This document shows, piece by piece, positions 18,446-28,784 of a DNA stretch of 64,000 nt (position 1 is its first letter; every line of letters starts with the position of its first letter). Below the pieces are notes generated by a model that searched no databases, was not told the origin of the DNA, and saw only the letters and a list, made by a program, of their open reading frames with translations. A program made the position numbers and the translations under genes. The DNA comes from Hydrogenophaga flava NBRC 102514 (GTDB lineage: Bacteria > Pseudomonadota > Gammaproteobacteria > Burkholderiales > Burkholderiaceae_C): assembly GCF_001571145.1 (NCBI RefSeq), contig NZ_BCTF01000001.1:186001-250000 (forward strand). The letters run 5' to 3'.

Positions 18446-18505
18446 AGAACCCCACAAGTGTAGTCGCCGGGTGGCGGCGGGCCACCACCCGGACCCTGAC
18501 GCAGA

Positions 18506-19459
18506 TCAAGCCAGGCCGCCCAGGCGCTCCATCGCATCGGCCAGCCAGTCTTTGGGCAGGGGCTCGTCCGCGGCCGGTGCAACCACCCAGCCTTCGCCGG
18601 CCGACTGCAGGCCGAAACGCCCCCGGGTCCAGAGCTGCCAGGCCAGCCAGGCGCAGTCGTCGGCAGAGGCCGCATCCCCGGCCGGTGCGGTCAGCAGGGC
18701 CATGCAGGGCTCGGTGCGGGCCAGGTGCAGCACACCGCCCCGAACCTCTGTGCCCAGGACGGCCGCCAGCTGCGCCAGCGCGTGTGCATCGTCCTGACGG
18801 GCGCCGAACCGCTCCAGCCAGGAGCGGACCTGCAGCGCCACCCCGGCGCCCCGGCGCGCCTCGGCCTGTTGCAGGTCTGCGTGGTCCCAGCGGTTCCAGT
18901 CCACCGCCGGCTCCTGCACCCCCACCCACAGGGCCGCCTGCGCGAGGCGGAACACGGCCCGCTCGTACCCCGCCGGGTCGGCGCCGGCGCCGATCGTCAA
19001 CAGGGAGGCGAGGCGCCCCGACACCAGGCGCGACTGCTGGGCCAGCATCTTGTCGCGCACCAGTTCGTCGCGCTCACTGCGCAGGGCCGACAGCTCCAGT
19101 GCGTTCTTCAGGTCGGAACGCAGGCTCTCCAGCTCCCAGGGTTTGGCGATGTAGCGGTAGATCTCGCCGGTATTGATCGCGTCGATGGCCTCGCCGATCT
19201 CGGAATAGGCCGTGGTGAGCATGCGCACGATGTGCGGATAGTGGGTACGGGCATGGCGCAGCAGTTCGTTGCCACGTTCGCCGGGCATGCGCTGGTCGCA
19301 CACGAGCACGGCGATATCGGCACCGTGCACGCTGAGCACCGCCCGCCCCTCGTCGACCGAATTGGCGGTCAGCACCGGGGCCAGCGGCCCCACCAGCCGC
19401 TCGAAGTATTTGAGGGCGATGGCCTCGTCATCGACGTACAGGATCTTCTCGGGTTTCAT
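18506..19459 (-). CDS. phcQ: Receiver-domain response regulator, PhcQ-like
   Basis: A 317-residue protein with an N-terminal receiver domain and a C-terminal region of unknown fold, with no DNA-binding or GGDEF output visible. Receiver marks are VDDEAIALKYFERL, the phospho-acceptor Asp55 in VLVCDQRMPG, and Lys106 in YIAKPWELESL. The C-terminal 180 residues are helical, acidic and Trp-rich. It is the last gene of a four-gene overlapping operon (ATGA overlap with the gene before) in the order methyltransferase, histidine kinase, receiver-kinase, receiver, as in Ralstonia phcBSRQ. PhcQ there modulates phc quorum sensing. The name is given by operon position and architecture, not by an alignment. 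Confidence 0.8.
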   Translation of the reverse strand: MKPEKILYVDDEAIALKYFERLVGPLAPVLTANSVDEGRAVLSVHGADIAVLVCDQRMPGERGNELLRHARTHYPHIVRMLTTAYSEIGEAIDAINTGEIYRYIAKPWELESLRSDLKNALELSALRSERDELVRDKMLAQQSRLVSGRLASLLTIGAGADPAGYERAVFRLAQAALWVGVQEPAVDWNRWDHADLQQAEARRGAGVALQVRSWLERFGARQDDAHALAQLAAVLGTEVRGGVLHLARTEPCMALLTAPAGDAASADDCAWLAWQLWTRGRFGLQSAGEGWVVAPAADEPLPKDWLADAMERLGGLA

Positions 19460-20646
19460 CTGGATACCTCATGGTGTTGTTCTGTGTCCGGGACACCAAA
19501 GTGCAGGCGGATGGCGGCGCCGCCGCCGGCCGGTGACCGTACCTCGACCGACCCGCCCACGGATGCCATCACCCGCCGGCAGAAGACCAGGCCCATGCCG
19601 CTGCCACCACTGCCCGACCGGGTGGTGACAGGCTCCCGGGTCAGCCGGGTCAGCACCTCCGGCGCAATGCCCGGACCGTTGTCGCTGATTTCAATGACCG
19701 CGCGGTCCGGCGTTCCCGCGACCACAATGCGAATGCGGGGTTCGGCCGGCAGCGCCGAATGCAGGGCCAGCAAGGCATTTTTGACCACGGTGCACAGCAC
19801 CAGGTACAGCAGGTCGCGCTGACCGGGCAGGACGAAGTCCTGCAGCACATCACAGACCAGCCAGCGCGCCTCGTCGCCATCGAAAGGATAGCCCTCGCGC
19901 ACCGATCGCACCAGATCACTGGCGAGTTCGCTGGCGCTGCCGTCGGCGTGGTAGGCGTCGCGCGCGGTGCGCACGAAGGTCGCCACCAGGGACTGGGCGT
20001 AGTCGGTGCGGCGCAGGGCCGCGTCCAGCATCGCGTCGATCTCGCCGGGACGGCGCTGGGTGAGGCAGACCAGGTCGGTGTTGCCGCACTGGGGGGGCTG
20101 CTGGCGTTCGCGCATGGCGTGCAGGTAGCCGCTGACGGTGGCCAGCGGGGTGCCCACCTCGTGCGCCAGAAAACCCAAGGTCTCGCGCAGGGCCTCGTCC
20201 CGCCGCTGCAGCAGGGTCTGCTCGCGCAGCCGCTGCTGGCAGGCCGCCAGGGCCTCTCGCAGGGCCCGCCGGGTCAGCGGTTCGTCCAGCGGCTTTTCCA
20301 GGATCTGCCCCACATGGCCCAGGTTGACCGCGGCCATCGCGACATCCTTGTCGGCGTAGGCCGACATCAGCAGCCGCGACACCAAGGGGTGCCGCTGCCG
20401 CACCTCGGCCAGCAGGGCCACACCGTCGCGTTCGGGCATGCGGTAGTCGGTCAGCAAGACGGCGACCTCGTGCCCCTGCCGGTCCAGCAGTTCCAGTGCC
20501 TGCCGCACGCTGGCCGCGGTCCGCACGTCGAACTCGTCGCCGTAGGAGCGCGCAAACCACTTGAGCGCCTGCGGCTCGTCGTCGACCAGCAGCACGGCAT
20601 GGGCCAGAGGAGGTGCGGAGCCGGAACCCGGCAGGTCGGATTTCAT
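19456..20646 (-). CDS. phcR: Receiver domain plus histidine kinase, PhcR-like
   Basis: A 396-residue protein has an N-terminal receiver (VLLVDDEPQALKWF, Asp67 in AVLLTDYRMPERDG, Lys118 in GQILEKPLDE) followed by a histidine kinase core: His162 in LGFLAHEVGTPLA, N-box KNALLALHSAL, ISDNGPGIAPE and SGMGLVFCRRVM. A response regulator whose output is a kinase instead of a DNA-binding domain is the unusual hallmark of Ralstonia PhcR. Its start codon overlaps the stop of the PhcS-like gene (ATGA) and its stop overlaps the PhcQ-like start. It should take phosphate from the upstream sensor kinase. Confidence 0.83.
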   Translation of the reverse strand: MKSDLPGSGSAPPLAHAVLLVDDEPQALKWFARSYGDEFDVRTAASVRQALELLDRQGHEVAVLLTDYRMPERDGVALLAEVRQRHPLVSRLLMSAYADKDVAMAAVNLGHVGQILEKPLDEPLTRRALREALAACQQRLREQTLLQRRDEALRETLGFLAHEVGTPLATVSGYLHAMRERQQPPQCGNTDLVCLTQRRPGEIDAMLDAALRRTDYAQSLVATFVRTARDAYHADGSASELASDLVRSVREGYPFDGDEARWLVCDVLQDFVLPGQRDLLYLVLCTVVKNALLALHSALPAEPRIRIVVAGTPDRAVIEISDNGPGIAPEVLTRLTREPVTTRSGSGGSGMGLVFCRRVMASVGGSVEVRSPAGGGAAIRLHFGVPDTEQHHEVSR

Positions 20647-21971
20647 TGGGGCGGCCTCGGCAGGTCGAACGAGAATTCGGTCCATTCGCCGACCACGCTG
20701 TCGACAGACAGGATGCCTCCGTGCCGCTGCACGATGCCGTAGCTCACGCTGAGCCCCAGCCCCAGGCCGGCCCCGACGTCGCGGGTGGTGAAGAACGGCT
20801 CGAACACCCGGCCGATGTTGGCCGGATCGATGCCGTGTCCGTTGTCCCGCACCGAGATCCGCAGCCGCTCGCCCTCCGGCGCCACCCGCACATCAATGCG
20901 CGGCTGCGGCCGCTGCACGGACTGCATGGCATGGGCGGCGTTGCTCAGCAGGTTGATCAGCACACCGATGATCGCCGGCTCGTCGCCCATCACATGGGTG
21001 TCCTGGGGCAGGTCGAGCGCCAGCTCGATGCCCTTGAGCTCGTAGCCGGCCAGGCGGATGGCCGAGCGCACCGCGTGCTCCAGCAGGAAGGGGCGCTGGT
21101 TGTCATCCCCGGGCTTCTGGTAGGCGAAGGTCTTGAGGTCGGAGACGATGTTCTGCACCCGGGTCAGCCCCTCGCGCGCATCGTCCAGGCTTTCCTTGAG
21201 CATCGGATCGGTCTTGGCCGAGGGCACGCTCAGGCCCATGTTCACCGCCATCAGGGCGTAGTTCACCGGGTTGTTGAGTTCGTGCAGCAGCCCGGCCGAG
21301 AGAGTGCCGATGGCGGCCATCTTCTCGCGCTGGATCAGCTGGCCCTTGACCTCGGCCAGGGTGCGGTTGATCTCCTGCAGCTTGTCGTTGTTCATGGCCA
21401 CCTCGTGCTGCAGCTGGAACAGGCGCAGCCGCGCCCGCTCGTTGAACCAGGTGCAGACCGCGCTGGCAATGGCAGAGAACAGGATGAACAGGCTGTTGGT
21501 GTAGAGCTTGCCGGGCTCGGCCACACCGTCGGGGTGGAGCATGCAGGCCATCATGTAGAGCACCAGCGTGAGCACACCGAAACCGATGCCCTCGAACAGC
21601 GTGATCGGCAGGATGATGCCCACGGCATACATCGCCAGGTGCAGGCCGACAAAGTAGATCGACTCGACCCCACTGGTCAGCCAGATCATCCAGGCGATCA
21701 TCATCTGCGGCAGCACCAGCCAAGTCATGGTGAGCACCCGCACCTGCTGCGCCCCCACCCGGGTGTAGAGCAGCATCAGGATGCCCAGGGTCAAGGTGGC
21801 CACCAGCAGCCGCAGCAGGAAGAACTCGAGCAGTCGGTCCGGGTAGGAGAAATAGTCCAGGCCCACCCCCGCGAGCACCAGGCCGATGGAGGTGATGCTG
21901 CCGGCCTTGCTGTAGGCGAGCCGGAACGCCGACAGCTGACGCTCGTAGGACGCTGTGTCCCTGGCGATCAT
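20643..21971 (-). CDS. phcS: Six-TM sensor histidine kinase, PhcS-like
   Basis: A 442-residue membrane sensor kinase has six hydrophobic segments between residues 25 and 176, then a dimerisation/phosphotransfer helix and ATPase domain. The H-box is AGLLHELNNPVNYAL with the phospho-accepting His at residue 230; N-box INLLSNAAHAMQ, DNGHGIDP and GLGLGLSVSYG follow. From memory, His230 is also the phosphorylation site named for R. solanacearum PhcS. PhcS senses a 3-hydroxy fatty acid methyl ester made by PhcB. ATG 21971 overlaps the stop of the methyltransferase gene. An upstream in-frame ATG at 22115 lies within that gene and is rejected. Confidence 0.85.
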   Translation of the reverse strand: MIARDTASYERQLSAFRLAYSKAGSITSIGLVLAGVGLDYFSYPDRLLEFFLLRLLVATLTLGILMLLYTRVGAQQVRVLTMTWLVLPQMMIAWMIWLTSGVESIYFVGLHLAMYAVGIILPITLFEGIGFGVLTLVLYMMACMLHPDGVAEPGKLYTNSLFILFSAIASAVCTWFNERARLRLFQLQHEVAMNNDKLQEINRTLAEVKGQLIQREKMAAIGTLSAGLLHELNNPVNYALMAVNMGLSVPSAKTDPMLKESLDDAREGLTRVQNIVSDLKTFAYQKPGDDNQRPFLLEHAVRSAIRLAGYELKGIELALDLPQDTHVMGDEPAIIGVLINLLSNAAHAMQSVQRPQPRIDVRVAPEGERLRISVRDNGHGIDPANIGRVFEPFFTTRDVGAGLGLGLSVSYGIVQRHGGILSVDSVVGEWTEFSFDLPRPPQ

Positions 21972-23389
21972 GCAGTGTCCAGGGTGCTGCGCCCCGGCAG
22001 CGTGGTTTCCGCGAACACGTTGACCCCGGTCGGGTCGGTGTAGAGCTCGATCGCCGCTCCGACCTCGGACATCACGGACGTCATCTGCGCCTCGTCCCGG
22101 TAGATCAGGTGCCACTCCAGCAGGTGCTCCATGCCGTGACGCTCGGGGTTGCTCGAGTGCACGTTGGTCAGCAGCATGCGGGCACCCGGAGCGGAGCGGG
22201 ACATGAAATAGCGGATCAGCCGGGTGCAGACTTTGTCGGACAGGTAGTCGAACAGGCCCGCGCAGTAGATGAAGTCAAAACCCCGTCCACCCTCCAGCGC
22301 CTGCGACTGGGCCGGGCGCTTGAGCAGGTCGTGCACCGACTCCTGGACATAGTTCACCTCGACCCGCCGGCCGGTCTCGGCCATCACCGCGTCGATGCGC
22401 TCGCGCGTGTAGTCCAGGGTCTCGCGGCTGAAGTCCAGCAGGGTGAAGCTCAGGCGGCTGAGGTCCGCACCGGAGGCGATCAGCCGCTGCAGCTCGACCG
22501 CCGGGCCGCAGCCCCCGTTGAGGATGCGCACCTGGCGCCCTTCCTGCTCGCCCAGGGCCACGGCGCGCCGGAGGTAGTCGACCAGGATGTTGATGCGGTT
22601 GCGGTGCGCCTCGGCCACCGCCGCCCGCAGGAAGGTCGCGTTGACCAGCTGGATGTAGGTGCTGCCGCCCTGCCGCGGGTCTCCCAGCAGCTGGTTGACC
22701 ATCTCGTAGTCGCCGGCATAGCCCAGCGGCTTGGCAAAGGTGCGGTAGACGAAAGGCGCCCGCAGCACCAGCGGGTGCAGCGCCGCCTGGGCATAGCTGC
22801 GGTGCAGCAGGGCATCGTCCGCGGGCACGCTGGCGGCCTCGCTTTCCAGCCGCACCAGGAAGCTCTTGCCCTTGGTCATCAGGGGCTCGGCCATGGCCCA
22901 GAAGACGGCATCGGTCAGCCGGCCGTCCTCGCCCTTGGGCAGCGAGTCCAGCATGTCGGCCTGGTCGATCCAGCGCGCGGTCTCGGACAGGAAGGCCCGG
23001 AACTCACTCACCGCCACCTGGTAACTTTCCTTGACCCGGAAGCGCTGCTCCCAGTCCTCGACAAAACGGGCGGCCTCCATGCCGACCTCCCGCACATTGC
23101 CACGGGCCAGATTGAGGTCCGACCACTCGTCAATCAGGGCCAGCGAGACCACCGCCATCAGGCCGGTGTTGAGCAGGCTCACCACCACGGCCTTGCCCTG
23201 GTAAATGGCGCGCTCGCCGGAGCGGATCACCAAGTCGCTGAGCACCTCGCTGACCTGGACGATGGAATAAGGGTTGTAGATCTCCATCACCAGCGAGCGG
23301 CGCTGGAGACTGGTCAGCGTGCCGCGCGCGGCTTCGCCTTGGCTGTTTCTGAAGGTGACAACAGGATCAAAGGGGCGCTGGGGTTGCAC
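21968..23389 (-). CDS. phcB: SAM-dependent methyltransferase, PhcB-like signal synthase
   Basis: A 473-residue protein has an N-terminal beta-rich domain (about 1-90) that resembles a PilZ-like barrel but lacks a clear RxxxR motif, a helical middle and a C-terminal class I methyltransferase domain. Motif I is VRILNGGCGPAVEL (residues 288-300), followed by FTLLDFSRETLDYT and FDFIYCAGLFDYLSD. In Ralstonia, PhcB methylates a 3-hydroxy fatty acid to give the quorum signal 3-OH PAME or 3-OH MAME. Here it heads the four-gene phc-like operon, each gene overlapping the next by four bases. The chemical identity of the signal in this strain is not readable from sequence. Confidence 0.83.
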   Translation of the reverse strand: MQPQRPFDPVVTFRNSQGEAARGTLTSLQRRSLVMEIYNPYSIVQVSEVLSDLVIRSGERAIYQGKAVVVSLLNTGLMAVVSLALIDEWSDLNLARGNVREVGMEAARFVEDWEQRFRVKESYQVAVSEFRAFLSETARWIDQADMLDSLPKGEDGRLTDAVFWAMAEPLMTKGKSFLVRLESEAASVPADDALLHRSYAQAALHPLVLRAPFVYRTFAKPLGYAGDYEMVNQLLGDPRQGGSTYIQLVNATFLRAAVAEAHRNRINILVDYLRRAVALGEQEGRQVRILNGGCGPAVELQRLIASGADLSRLSFTLLDFSRETLDYTRERIDAVMAETGRRVEVNYVQESVHDLLKRPAQSQALEGGRGFDFIYCAGLFDYLSDKVCTRLIRYFMSRSAPGARMLLTNVHSSNPERHGMEHLLEWHLIYRDEAQMTSVMSEVGAAIELYTDPTGVNVFAETTLPGRSTLDTA

Positions 23390-23510
23390 GGCGGTTGGAT
23401 GTCAACGGTGGTGGGGCGAATCACCCCGATCGGAATCTCCCAATCTGCCAGTGTAGTCATCTGTGACCTGTTTCACGGTCGCAACTGTCGTCCAAACGCC
23501 GCTCGGGCGC

Positions 23511-28058: not shown

Positions 28059-28784
28059 CTACAGCACCCCTGATCGCAGCGACGGAAGGTCCAGCACCCG
28101 CAAGCCCCCGTACTCCACCCGGATCCAGCCCTTGTCGGCCAGCGCCGTCAGCGCCTCGTTCACCCGCTGGCGCGACAGGCCCACGAGGTAGGCCAGCTCC
28201 TGCTGGGTGATGCGCAGCACGCCGCCGACGTTGGGCGAGAGCAGCGGGTGAAACAGCGCCGCCAGGTTGCGCGCCACCCGCAGGTCGGGGCTGGAGATGC
28301 GGTCGATCTCGCGCGCGGCGATGAACTGGCCCAGCCGCTCGTTGAGCTGGTTCATCACGAAGCGGTTGAAACCGATCGAGTGGTCCAGCAGCCAGTGGAA
28401 GGTGTCCACGGGCAGGCCGGCCACCCGGCTCCTGCGCAGGGACTGGATGTTGTAGCGGTAGGCCTCGCGCTTGAGCACCGTGCCCTCGCCGAACCAGCCG
28501 CCCGGCGCGACGCCGGTGAAGGTGATCACCGCGCCCTGCGAGTCGTCGTTGCTCATCTTGAGCAGGCCATCGAGCAGGCCGAACCAGTAGGTCGCGGGCC
28601 GGCCGATGCGGCAGATGTACTCGCCCACCTGCACCTCGTTGACCACCAGCGCACCGAGCGCACGCTCGCGCTCGTCGGGCATCAGCTCCTTGAGCCAGGG
28701 GATTTCCAACAGCTCGCTCTCGGACGCAGGCCGCGCGCTGGCGCGCAGCGCGGAGCCGGAACGGGGGTGCTTGGCGGAGACCAT
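28059..28784 (-). CDS. Crp/Fnr-family transcription regulator
   Basis: A 241-residue regulator has an N-terminal cyclic-nucleotide-binding-type barrel ([31 protein letters not shown]), a dimerisation helix ([17 protein letters not shown]) and a C-terminal winged helix with recognition segment [20 protein letters not shown]. There is no Fnr-type N-terminal cysteine cluster, so an iron-sulfur oxygen sensor is unlikely. The phosphate-binding residues of true CRP are not clearly conserved, so the effector is unknown. It is divergent from the acyl-CoA ligase/liv operon, with an 18-base palindrome between them that suits a Crp-type site. Confidence 0.9.

What the first reader, a model, noticed from the sequence alone, without database searches (positions are those of the whole stretch)
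18506..23389. A complete phcBSRQ-like quorum-sensing operon outside Ralstonia
Four genes with four-base overlaps encode, in order, a SAM methyltransferase, a six-TM histidine kinase with phospho-His at residue 230, a receiver fused to a histidine kinase, and a receiver protein without DNA-binding domain. This is the order and the unusual architecture of R. solanacearum PhcB-PhcS-PhcR-PhcQ, which makes and senses 3-hydroxy fatty acid methyl esters. The host looks like Comamonadaceae, where this signalling is little studied. The signal and the regulated genes are unknown; no phcA (LysR-type) gene is in the window.
Basis: partly seen in the sequence, partly recalled or inferred. Interest (0 to 1): 0.85.

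Follow-up and report, generated by a model that had tools for sequence, protein, structure and literature searches.

The report
Phc quorum-sensing operon lacking its regulator
This environmental bacterium carries the same four-gene cell-to-cell signalling operon that a notorious plant pathogen uses, but not the master switch the pathogen connects it to, so the signal must control something else here.

Summary
Its spread in Betaproteobacteria is published (PMC10653808). "Complete" is wrong where it matters. PhcA has no ortholog in this genome, in the 36 genomes searched of its genus, or in 18 of 18 tested phcB-bearing genomes outside Ralstonia/Cupriavidus; 7 of 7 Ralstonia/Cupriavidus genomes (one the query's source) have it at 74-100 %. 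The host's best candidate fails a reciprocal test. The likeliest reading is a working 3-hydroxy-fatty-acid methyl-ester system whose output partner is not PhcA and is unidentified. Host LpxA has Phe at the chain-length ruler position (Gly in R. pickettii), which hints at a shorter signal (C8-C10) than Ralstonia's C14/C16. An alpha-hydroxyketone-type (Lqs) cluster lies about 43 kb from the operon. Signal, sensing and output are untested.

The parts
21968..23389 (-). phcB: SAM-dependent methyltransferase (473 aa, GTG start), predicted 3-hydroxy-fatty-acid methyl ester synthase; N-terminal beta-rich domain of no recognised family
   Evidence: 56 % identity to R. pickettii L085 PhcB
20643..21971 (-). 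phcS: membrane sensor histidine kinase (442 aa), phospho-acceptor His230
   Evidence: 54 % identity to R. pickettii L085 PhcS
19456..20646 (-). phcR: receiver (D67) plus histidine kinase (H162), 396 aa
   Evidence: 43 % identity to Ralstonia sp. L087 PhcR
18506..19459 (-). phcQ: receiver (D55) plus C-terminal region of no recognised family, 317 aa
   Evidence: 43-44 % identity to L085/L087 PhcQ (receiver 62 %, C-part 31-32 %)
23450..23459 (-). TGACTACACT, conserved promoter-like element ending 60 nt before the phcB start codon
   Evidence: in 22 of 28 host-genus loci L001-L028 (L028 lacks the 5' end of phcB); 2 copies in the whole genome, as many as the reversed control pattern; upstream alignment

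Best explanation
The operon is a PhcBSRQ-type quorum-sensing module. PhcB methylates a (3-hydroxy) fatty acid to a diffusible methyl ester (inferred from orthology). PhcS senses it, autophosphorylates on His230 and passes phosphate to the receivers of PhcR and PhcQ (inferred; residues shown present). PhcQ and PhcR then act by protein contact on a partner (inferred). In Ralstonia that partner is PhcA; here no PhcA ortholog exists (shown at sequence level), so the output is another, unidentified protein. The signal is probably shorter-chained (C8-C10) than in Ralstonia, because the host's 3-hydroxyacyl pool appears short (inferred).
For: Four-gene orthology and order. His230 is the residue required in R. 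pseudosolanacearum PhcS (PMC11960443, passages). PhcQ binds PhcA directly there (PMC13320629, passages). PhcA: a LysR gene 10 kb from phcQ in R. pickettii; 74-100 % matches in 7 of 7 Ralstonia/Cupriavidus genomes (one the query's source), none in 18 of 18 other phcB-bearing genomes; best score among 60 relatives, host included, is 131 bits at 32 %; 2 of 399 genomes of the order, both in the genus of Cupriavidus sp. 2SB; the host's best candidate has six better matches in R. pickettii and nine in a Cupriavidus than their PhcA. phcB is kept in 28 of 36 genus members without PhcA. LpxA ruler residue is Phe, against Gly in R. pickettii (rule from PMC6408518 passage).
Against: No chemical, genetic or expression evidence. 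PhcB could methylate another acid. The output partner was not found: no DNA-binding regulator adjoins the operon, though a MarR gene beside ohr and a Crp/Fnr-type gene about 4.7 kb upstream are conserved neighbours and untested. The PhcB substrate pool need not follow LpxA; no specificity residue of PhcB or PhcS was tested. LysR paralogs at about 30 % cannot be excluded as stand-ins for PhcA. PhcQ's C-part is no more diverged from PhcA-lacking (34, 37 %) than from PhcA-bearing genomes (31, 35 %), so it shows no trace of a partner change.
Confidence: 0.75

Rival explanations
1. The Phc operon feeds into the alpha-hydroxyketone (Lqs) circuit of the same genome: PhcQ/PhcR converge on the LqsR-like response regulator encoded about 43 kb away, a counterpart of the PhcX link in Ralstonia.
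For: Host has lqsA (NF005526, 510 bits, cut-off 428), a histidine kinase and an LqsR-like protein in one cluster. Among 35 other genus members lqsA (E<=1e-60; two of the 28 matches are fragments under the cut-off) is in 24 of 27 with phcB and 4 of 8 without (Fisher p 0.03, not corrected for phylogeny or draft assemblies). In the 14 genomes (host included) where phcB and lqsA lie on one contig they start 36-63 kb apart (my reading).
Against: Three phcB-bearing genomes, two of them single-contig (G005, G022), lack lqsA; four lqsA genomes lack phcB. The linkage may be plain synteny. No evidence of contact.
Confidence: 0.15
2. A PhcA ortholog exists but was missed (diverged past recognition or in an assembly gap).
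For: Host assembly has 82 contigs; LysR paralogs at 29-32 % exist; in large genomes only part of the first-look candidates was scored (for example 35 of 46 in the host).
Against: Host is 100 % complete by the tool's estimate; five single-contig genus members (G005, G007, G022, G024, G025) also lack it. R. pickettii to Cupriavidus PhcA is 74-77 % identical and PhcB from R. pickettii to host is still 56 %, so an ortholog should be visible. Reciprocal test fails.
Confidence: 0.06
3. PhcB makes no secreted signal: the operon is an internal sensor of membrane or 3-hydroxy fatty acids (a relay with a lipid-modifying enzyme).
For: No signal has been measured; the sensor part of PhcS is its less conserved half (45 % against 62 %).
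Against: Orthologous PhcB/PhcS make and sense diffusible methyl esters in Ralstonia (PMC8578825, PMC11960443, passages); same gene order over distant genera.
Confidence: 0.12
4. Degenerate remnant of a Phc system after loss of PhcA.
For: PhcA absent; phcR is short or absent in 20 of 80 named loci.
Against: All four window ORFs intact with key residues; phcB kept in 28 of 36 genus members down to 59 % identity; promoter-like element conserved.
Confidence: 0.03

Closest known systems
[quoted passage not shown]
   Same: Four genes, order, domain architecture, PhcS His230, receiver proteins without DNA-binding domain
   Different: No PhcA ortholog; no adjacent phcX (upstream gene is htpG); 43-56 % identity to the Ralstonia proteins compared (R. 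pickettii and a Ralstonia sp., not R. solanacearum itself); signal untested and probably shorter
phc operons of Cupriavidus
   Same: Same four genes and order
   Different: The 5 Cupriavidus genomes tested keep phcA at 74-77 % identity to R. pickettii PhcA; the host does not
PhcA-less phc operons of Paraburkholderia, Massilia, Janthinobacterium and host-genus relatives
   Same: phcB-phcS-phcQ kept, phcA absent in all genomes tested
   Different: 17 of 80 named loci, all labelled Paraburkholderia, have a short phcR and 3 have none; the host keeps a full PhcR
Lqs (alpha-hydroxyketone) system of Legionella and many Proteobacteria
   Same: Two-component quorum sensing ending in a receiver protein; a copy is in the same genome
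   Different: Synthase is a PLP-dependent LqsA, not a methyltransferase; separate cluster about 43 kb from the operon

Membership tests
PhcBSRQ operon | Four genes B-S-R-Q adjacent in this order | tested here: met
PhcBSRQ operon | Orthology of each protein to Ralstonia/Cupriavidus Phc proteins over full length | tested here: met
   PhcB 56 %, PhcS 54 %, PhcR 43 %, PhcQ 43-44 % to Ralstonia loci L085/L087; alignments
PhcBSRQ operon | PhcS phospho-acceptor His230 in a membrane kinase | tested here: met
   role of H230 from PMC11960443
PhcBSRQ operon | PhcB makes a 3-hydroxy fatty acid methyl ester | not testable with these tools
   needs GC-MS; methyltransferase fold only
PhcBSRQ operon | PhcS senses that ester | not testable with these tools
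   needs an expression assay
Phc quorum-sensing system including its output regulator | LysR regulator PhcA present in the genome | tested here: not met
Phc quorum-sensing system of Ralstonia | phcX (LqsR family) next to phcB | tested here: not met
   upstream gene is htpG (HSP90); the only PhcX-like match in the genome at E<=1e-20, 34 % over about 150 residues, is more than 40 kb away
Lqs system (second cluster in genome) | alpha-hydroxyketone synthase LqsA above curated cut-off, with kinase and LqsR-like regulator | tested here: met
   NF005526 510 bits

The most novel reading that the evidence does not exclude
PhcBSRQ is an older, mobile signalling module that works without PhcA over most of its range, and PhcA is an add-on confined to Ralstonia/Cupriavidus. 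In this genus the module signals with a short-chain (C8-C10) 3-hydroxy methyl ester to an unknown partner of PhcQ.
Probability: 0.45. Interest if true: 0.7.

Novelty: new variant of a known kind. Interest (0 to 1): 0.5.

Why it matters
The Phc system is studied mainly as the trigger of PhcA and of bacterial wilt virulence. If carriers outside Ralstonia/Cupriavidus lack PhcA, the module's basic job is not virulence control through PhcA, and PhcQ must have other partners. That makes the open question of what PhcQ does testable in environmental bacteria, and gives a specific chemical prediction (C8-C10 rather than C14-C16 methyl esters).

Tried and rejected
Output regulator beside the operon: a comparison of gene families shared by 26 loci and the window puts htpG (8 of 11) and ohr/OsmC (8 of 11; MarR in 7) around the operon in the host-family loci L119-L129, and a Crp/Fnr-type gene 3-8 kb away in 5 of those 11 and in the window. 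A LysR family occurs near 5 loci, not the window; its members are only 31-34 % alike where compared and are not PhcA. No regulator adjoins the operon in the window. The method sees only families shared between loci.

PhcB promoter motif as a regulon box: 2 copies genome-wide, no more than its control, rejected. PhcQ C-part as a degenerate kinase related to PhcR: hhalign aligned only the receiver and the start of the following helix; the 50 Foldseek rows shown align mainly over the receiver, with the longest alignments (PorX, RssB, 3bre, LvrB) at rmsd 10 A or more; Pfam gave nothing over a cut-off; not supported. PhcB N-terminal domain as PilZ-like: no Pfam support, low model confidence there; left open. 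Low-GC stretch 46-56 kb as an island: it holds rpoA and secY (by eye), ordinary.

Tree of PhcB+PhcS (42 rows; L083, L095, L097, L107 dropped because one of the two proteins was not extracted; rooting on the host family is arbitrary, and that family did not come out as one clade): five Paraburkholderia group with Cupriavidus basilensis L058 (95) inside a Cupriavidus clade of 11 (100), and PhcA-bearing genomes are not one clade. This suggests the operon moves without phcA; it is support, not proof.

The literature search gave nothing relevant. A first count of phcR forms (70/7/3) used a looser rule and was replaced (60/17/3).
Full report
OBSERVATION. The four ORFs are at the stated coordinates on the minus strand: phcB 23389..21968, phcS 21971..20643, phcR 20646..19456, phcQ 19459..18506, each pair overlapping by ATGA. 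Domain scans give HisKA+HATPase_c for PhcS, receiver+HATPase_c with a HisKA match just under its cut-off for PhcR, and a receiver only for PhcQ; the methyltransferase is sub-threshold in Pfam. None of the NCBIfam families shown is a Phc family (best 25 per protein shown). The AlphaFold2 model of PhcB (16 sequences, mean pLDDT 72, poor in the N-terminal quarter) has a class I methyltransferase C-terminal part (best PDB hit 3ocj, E 1.2e-10). PhcQ (20 sequences, pLDDT 87) is a receiver, a long helix and a C-terminal region without a recognised family.

RELATIVES. PhcB is single-copy in the host genome. Of 60 relatives searched (host included), 29 match at E<=0.001: the host, 27 of 35 others of the genus at 59-77 % identity (one of them a fragment), and one weak hit of 25 % in another family. 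Of 399 genomes of the order, 12 match, two of them weak (25 and 27 %). Its query alignment was headed by a Cupriavidus-type sequence, so the list favours Burkholderiaceae; it does not name the host and holds no record titled R. solanacearum. 78 of 80 loci give hits to the four proteins in order. By the phcS-phcQ gap, 60 of 80 have room for a full phcR, 17 a short one, 3 none. Identity of window proteins to Ralstonia (L085 R. pickettii; PhcR to L087 Ralstonia sp.): PhcB 56, PhcS 54, PhcR 43, PhcQ 43 %. PhcQ receiver 62 % against C-part 31 %; PhcS kinase 62 % against sensor part 45 %.

PHCA. In the R. pickettii genome a LysR gene lies about 10 kb downstream of phcQ on the same contig. I take it as PhcA from its position and from recalled sequence; no tool labels it. 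With it as query, 7 of 7 Ralstonia/Cupriavidus genomes match at 74-100 % (one is the query's own genome; in another the match is split over two frames). 18 of 18 other phcB-bearing genomes (6 Paraburkholderia, 2 Janthinobacterium, 1 Massilia, 6 MAGs, 3 unnamed) have nothing above 36 % identity or about 119 bits; second-best LysRs in Ralstonia/Cupriavidus reach 125 bits, so this is the level of other paralogs (in large genomes 84 candidates were scored). Across 60 relatives, host included, the best score is 131 bits at 32 %; one partial match reaches 36 %. In 399 genomes of the order, 2 match at E<=1e-50, both in one genus; one is Cupriavidus sp. 2SB, also counted under another handle (only 5 candidates per genome were scored). 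The host's best candidate (G000:C1:261075, beside what looks like a ring-hydroxylating oxygenase gene) has six better matches in R. pickettii, and nine in a Cupriavidus, than the PhcA there. So PhcA is absent by sequence.

LITERATURE. Passages unless said otherwise. PMC10653808 (section 17 whole) maps phc and lqs clusters over Proteobacteria, calls phc restricted within Betaproteobacteria, names Hydrogenophaga, Cupriavidus and Ralstonia as genera with phcX beside phc, and sought PhcA orthologs; its figure and tables were not seen, and the passages do not discuss PhcA absence. PMC6989110 mentions Cupriavidus and Paraburkholderia homologues. PMC8578825 describes the operon. PMC11960443 gives the H230 requirement. 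PMC13320629 shows PhcQ binding PhcA. In the full-text searches (12 of 12 listed; 30 of 61; 20 of 27; 15 of 50; 20 of 29; 8 of 28), no listed title or abstract start is about phc operons without PhcA; this covers only the held library and those lists.

SIGNAL. Host LpxA has Phe where E. coli has Gly173, P. aeruginosa Met169, and B. thailandensis and R. pickettii Gly (the organisms of the PDB chains are recalled; two of the six LpxA found were compared). G173M in E. coli shifts LpxA from C14 to C10 (PMC6408518; see also PMC6286764). Five Rhodoferax strains list 3-OH C8:0 and/or C10:0, one of them also 3-OH C9:0 and C17:0, and no 3-OH C14 or C16 (PMC7074706 table); Limnohabitans strains list 3-OH C8:0, with C10:0 or C12:0 in some (PMC3031073). 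The host is not shown to be either genus. If PhcB draws on this pool, its product would be shorter than Ralstonia's.

SECOND SYSTEM. At about G000:C1:158-162 kb lie an lqsA (510 bits, cut-off 428), a histidine kinase and an LqsR-like protein, about 43 kb from the operon. lqsA is in 24 of 27 phcB-bearing and 4 of 8 phcB-lacking genus members, host excluded (Fisher p 0.03, not corrected for relatedness). In the 14 genomes with phcB and lqsA on one contig they start 36-63 kb apart.

MECHANISM AND VERDICT. Shown: gene content, order, residues, PhcA absence. Inferred: ester synthesis, sensing, phosphotransfer, non-PhcA output, chain length. The operon is a member of the PhcBSRQ family; it is not a member of the full Phc-PhcA system. 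I rate it a new variant of a known kind.

Noticed in passing
G000:C1:158-162 kb (L200, L202), outside the window, about 43 kb from the operon: Second quorum-sensing cluster: lqsA (alpha-hydroxyketone autoinducer synthase), histidine kinase and LqsR-like regulator; phcB and lqsA start 36-63 kb apart in the 14 genomes that have both on one contig.
   Followed up: partly
L094, L115 and 15 other loci; L097, L098, L106: phcR is short in 17 of 80 named loci (all Paraburkholderia; 140-144 aa receivers in those extracted) and absent in 3, so the PhcR kinase can be lost.
   Followed up: partly
L075 and L111 (one contig of Paraburkholderia translucens): Two different phc operons about 12 kb apart in one genome.
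   Followed up: no
window 28059-28784 (-): Crp/Fnr-type regulator, conserved about 3-8 kb upstream of the operon in 5 of the 11 host-family loci L119-L129; untested candidate for a link.
   Followed up: partly
window 18457-18465 (-): The 9-mer GACTACACT of the phcB promoter recurs just upstream of the next gene (LPG_synthase_TM family); 2 in the window against 0.05 expected.
   Followed up: partly
G435:C26:39987-41029: phcA of one Ralstonia genome is read in two overlapping frames in this assembly; left untouched.
   Followed up: no
window 46-56 kb: GC falls to about 60 %; the stretch holds rpoA and secY (by eye), an ordinary core-gene region, not an island.
   Followed up: partly
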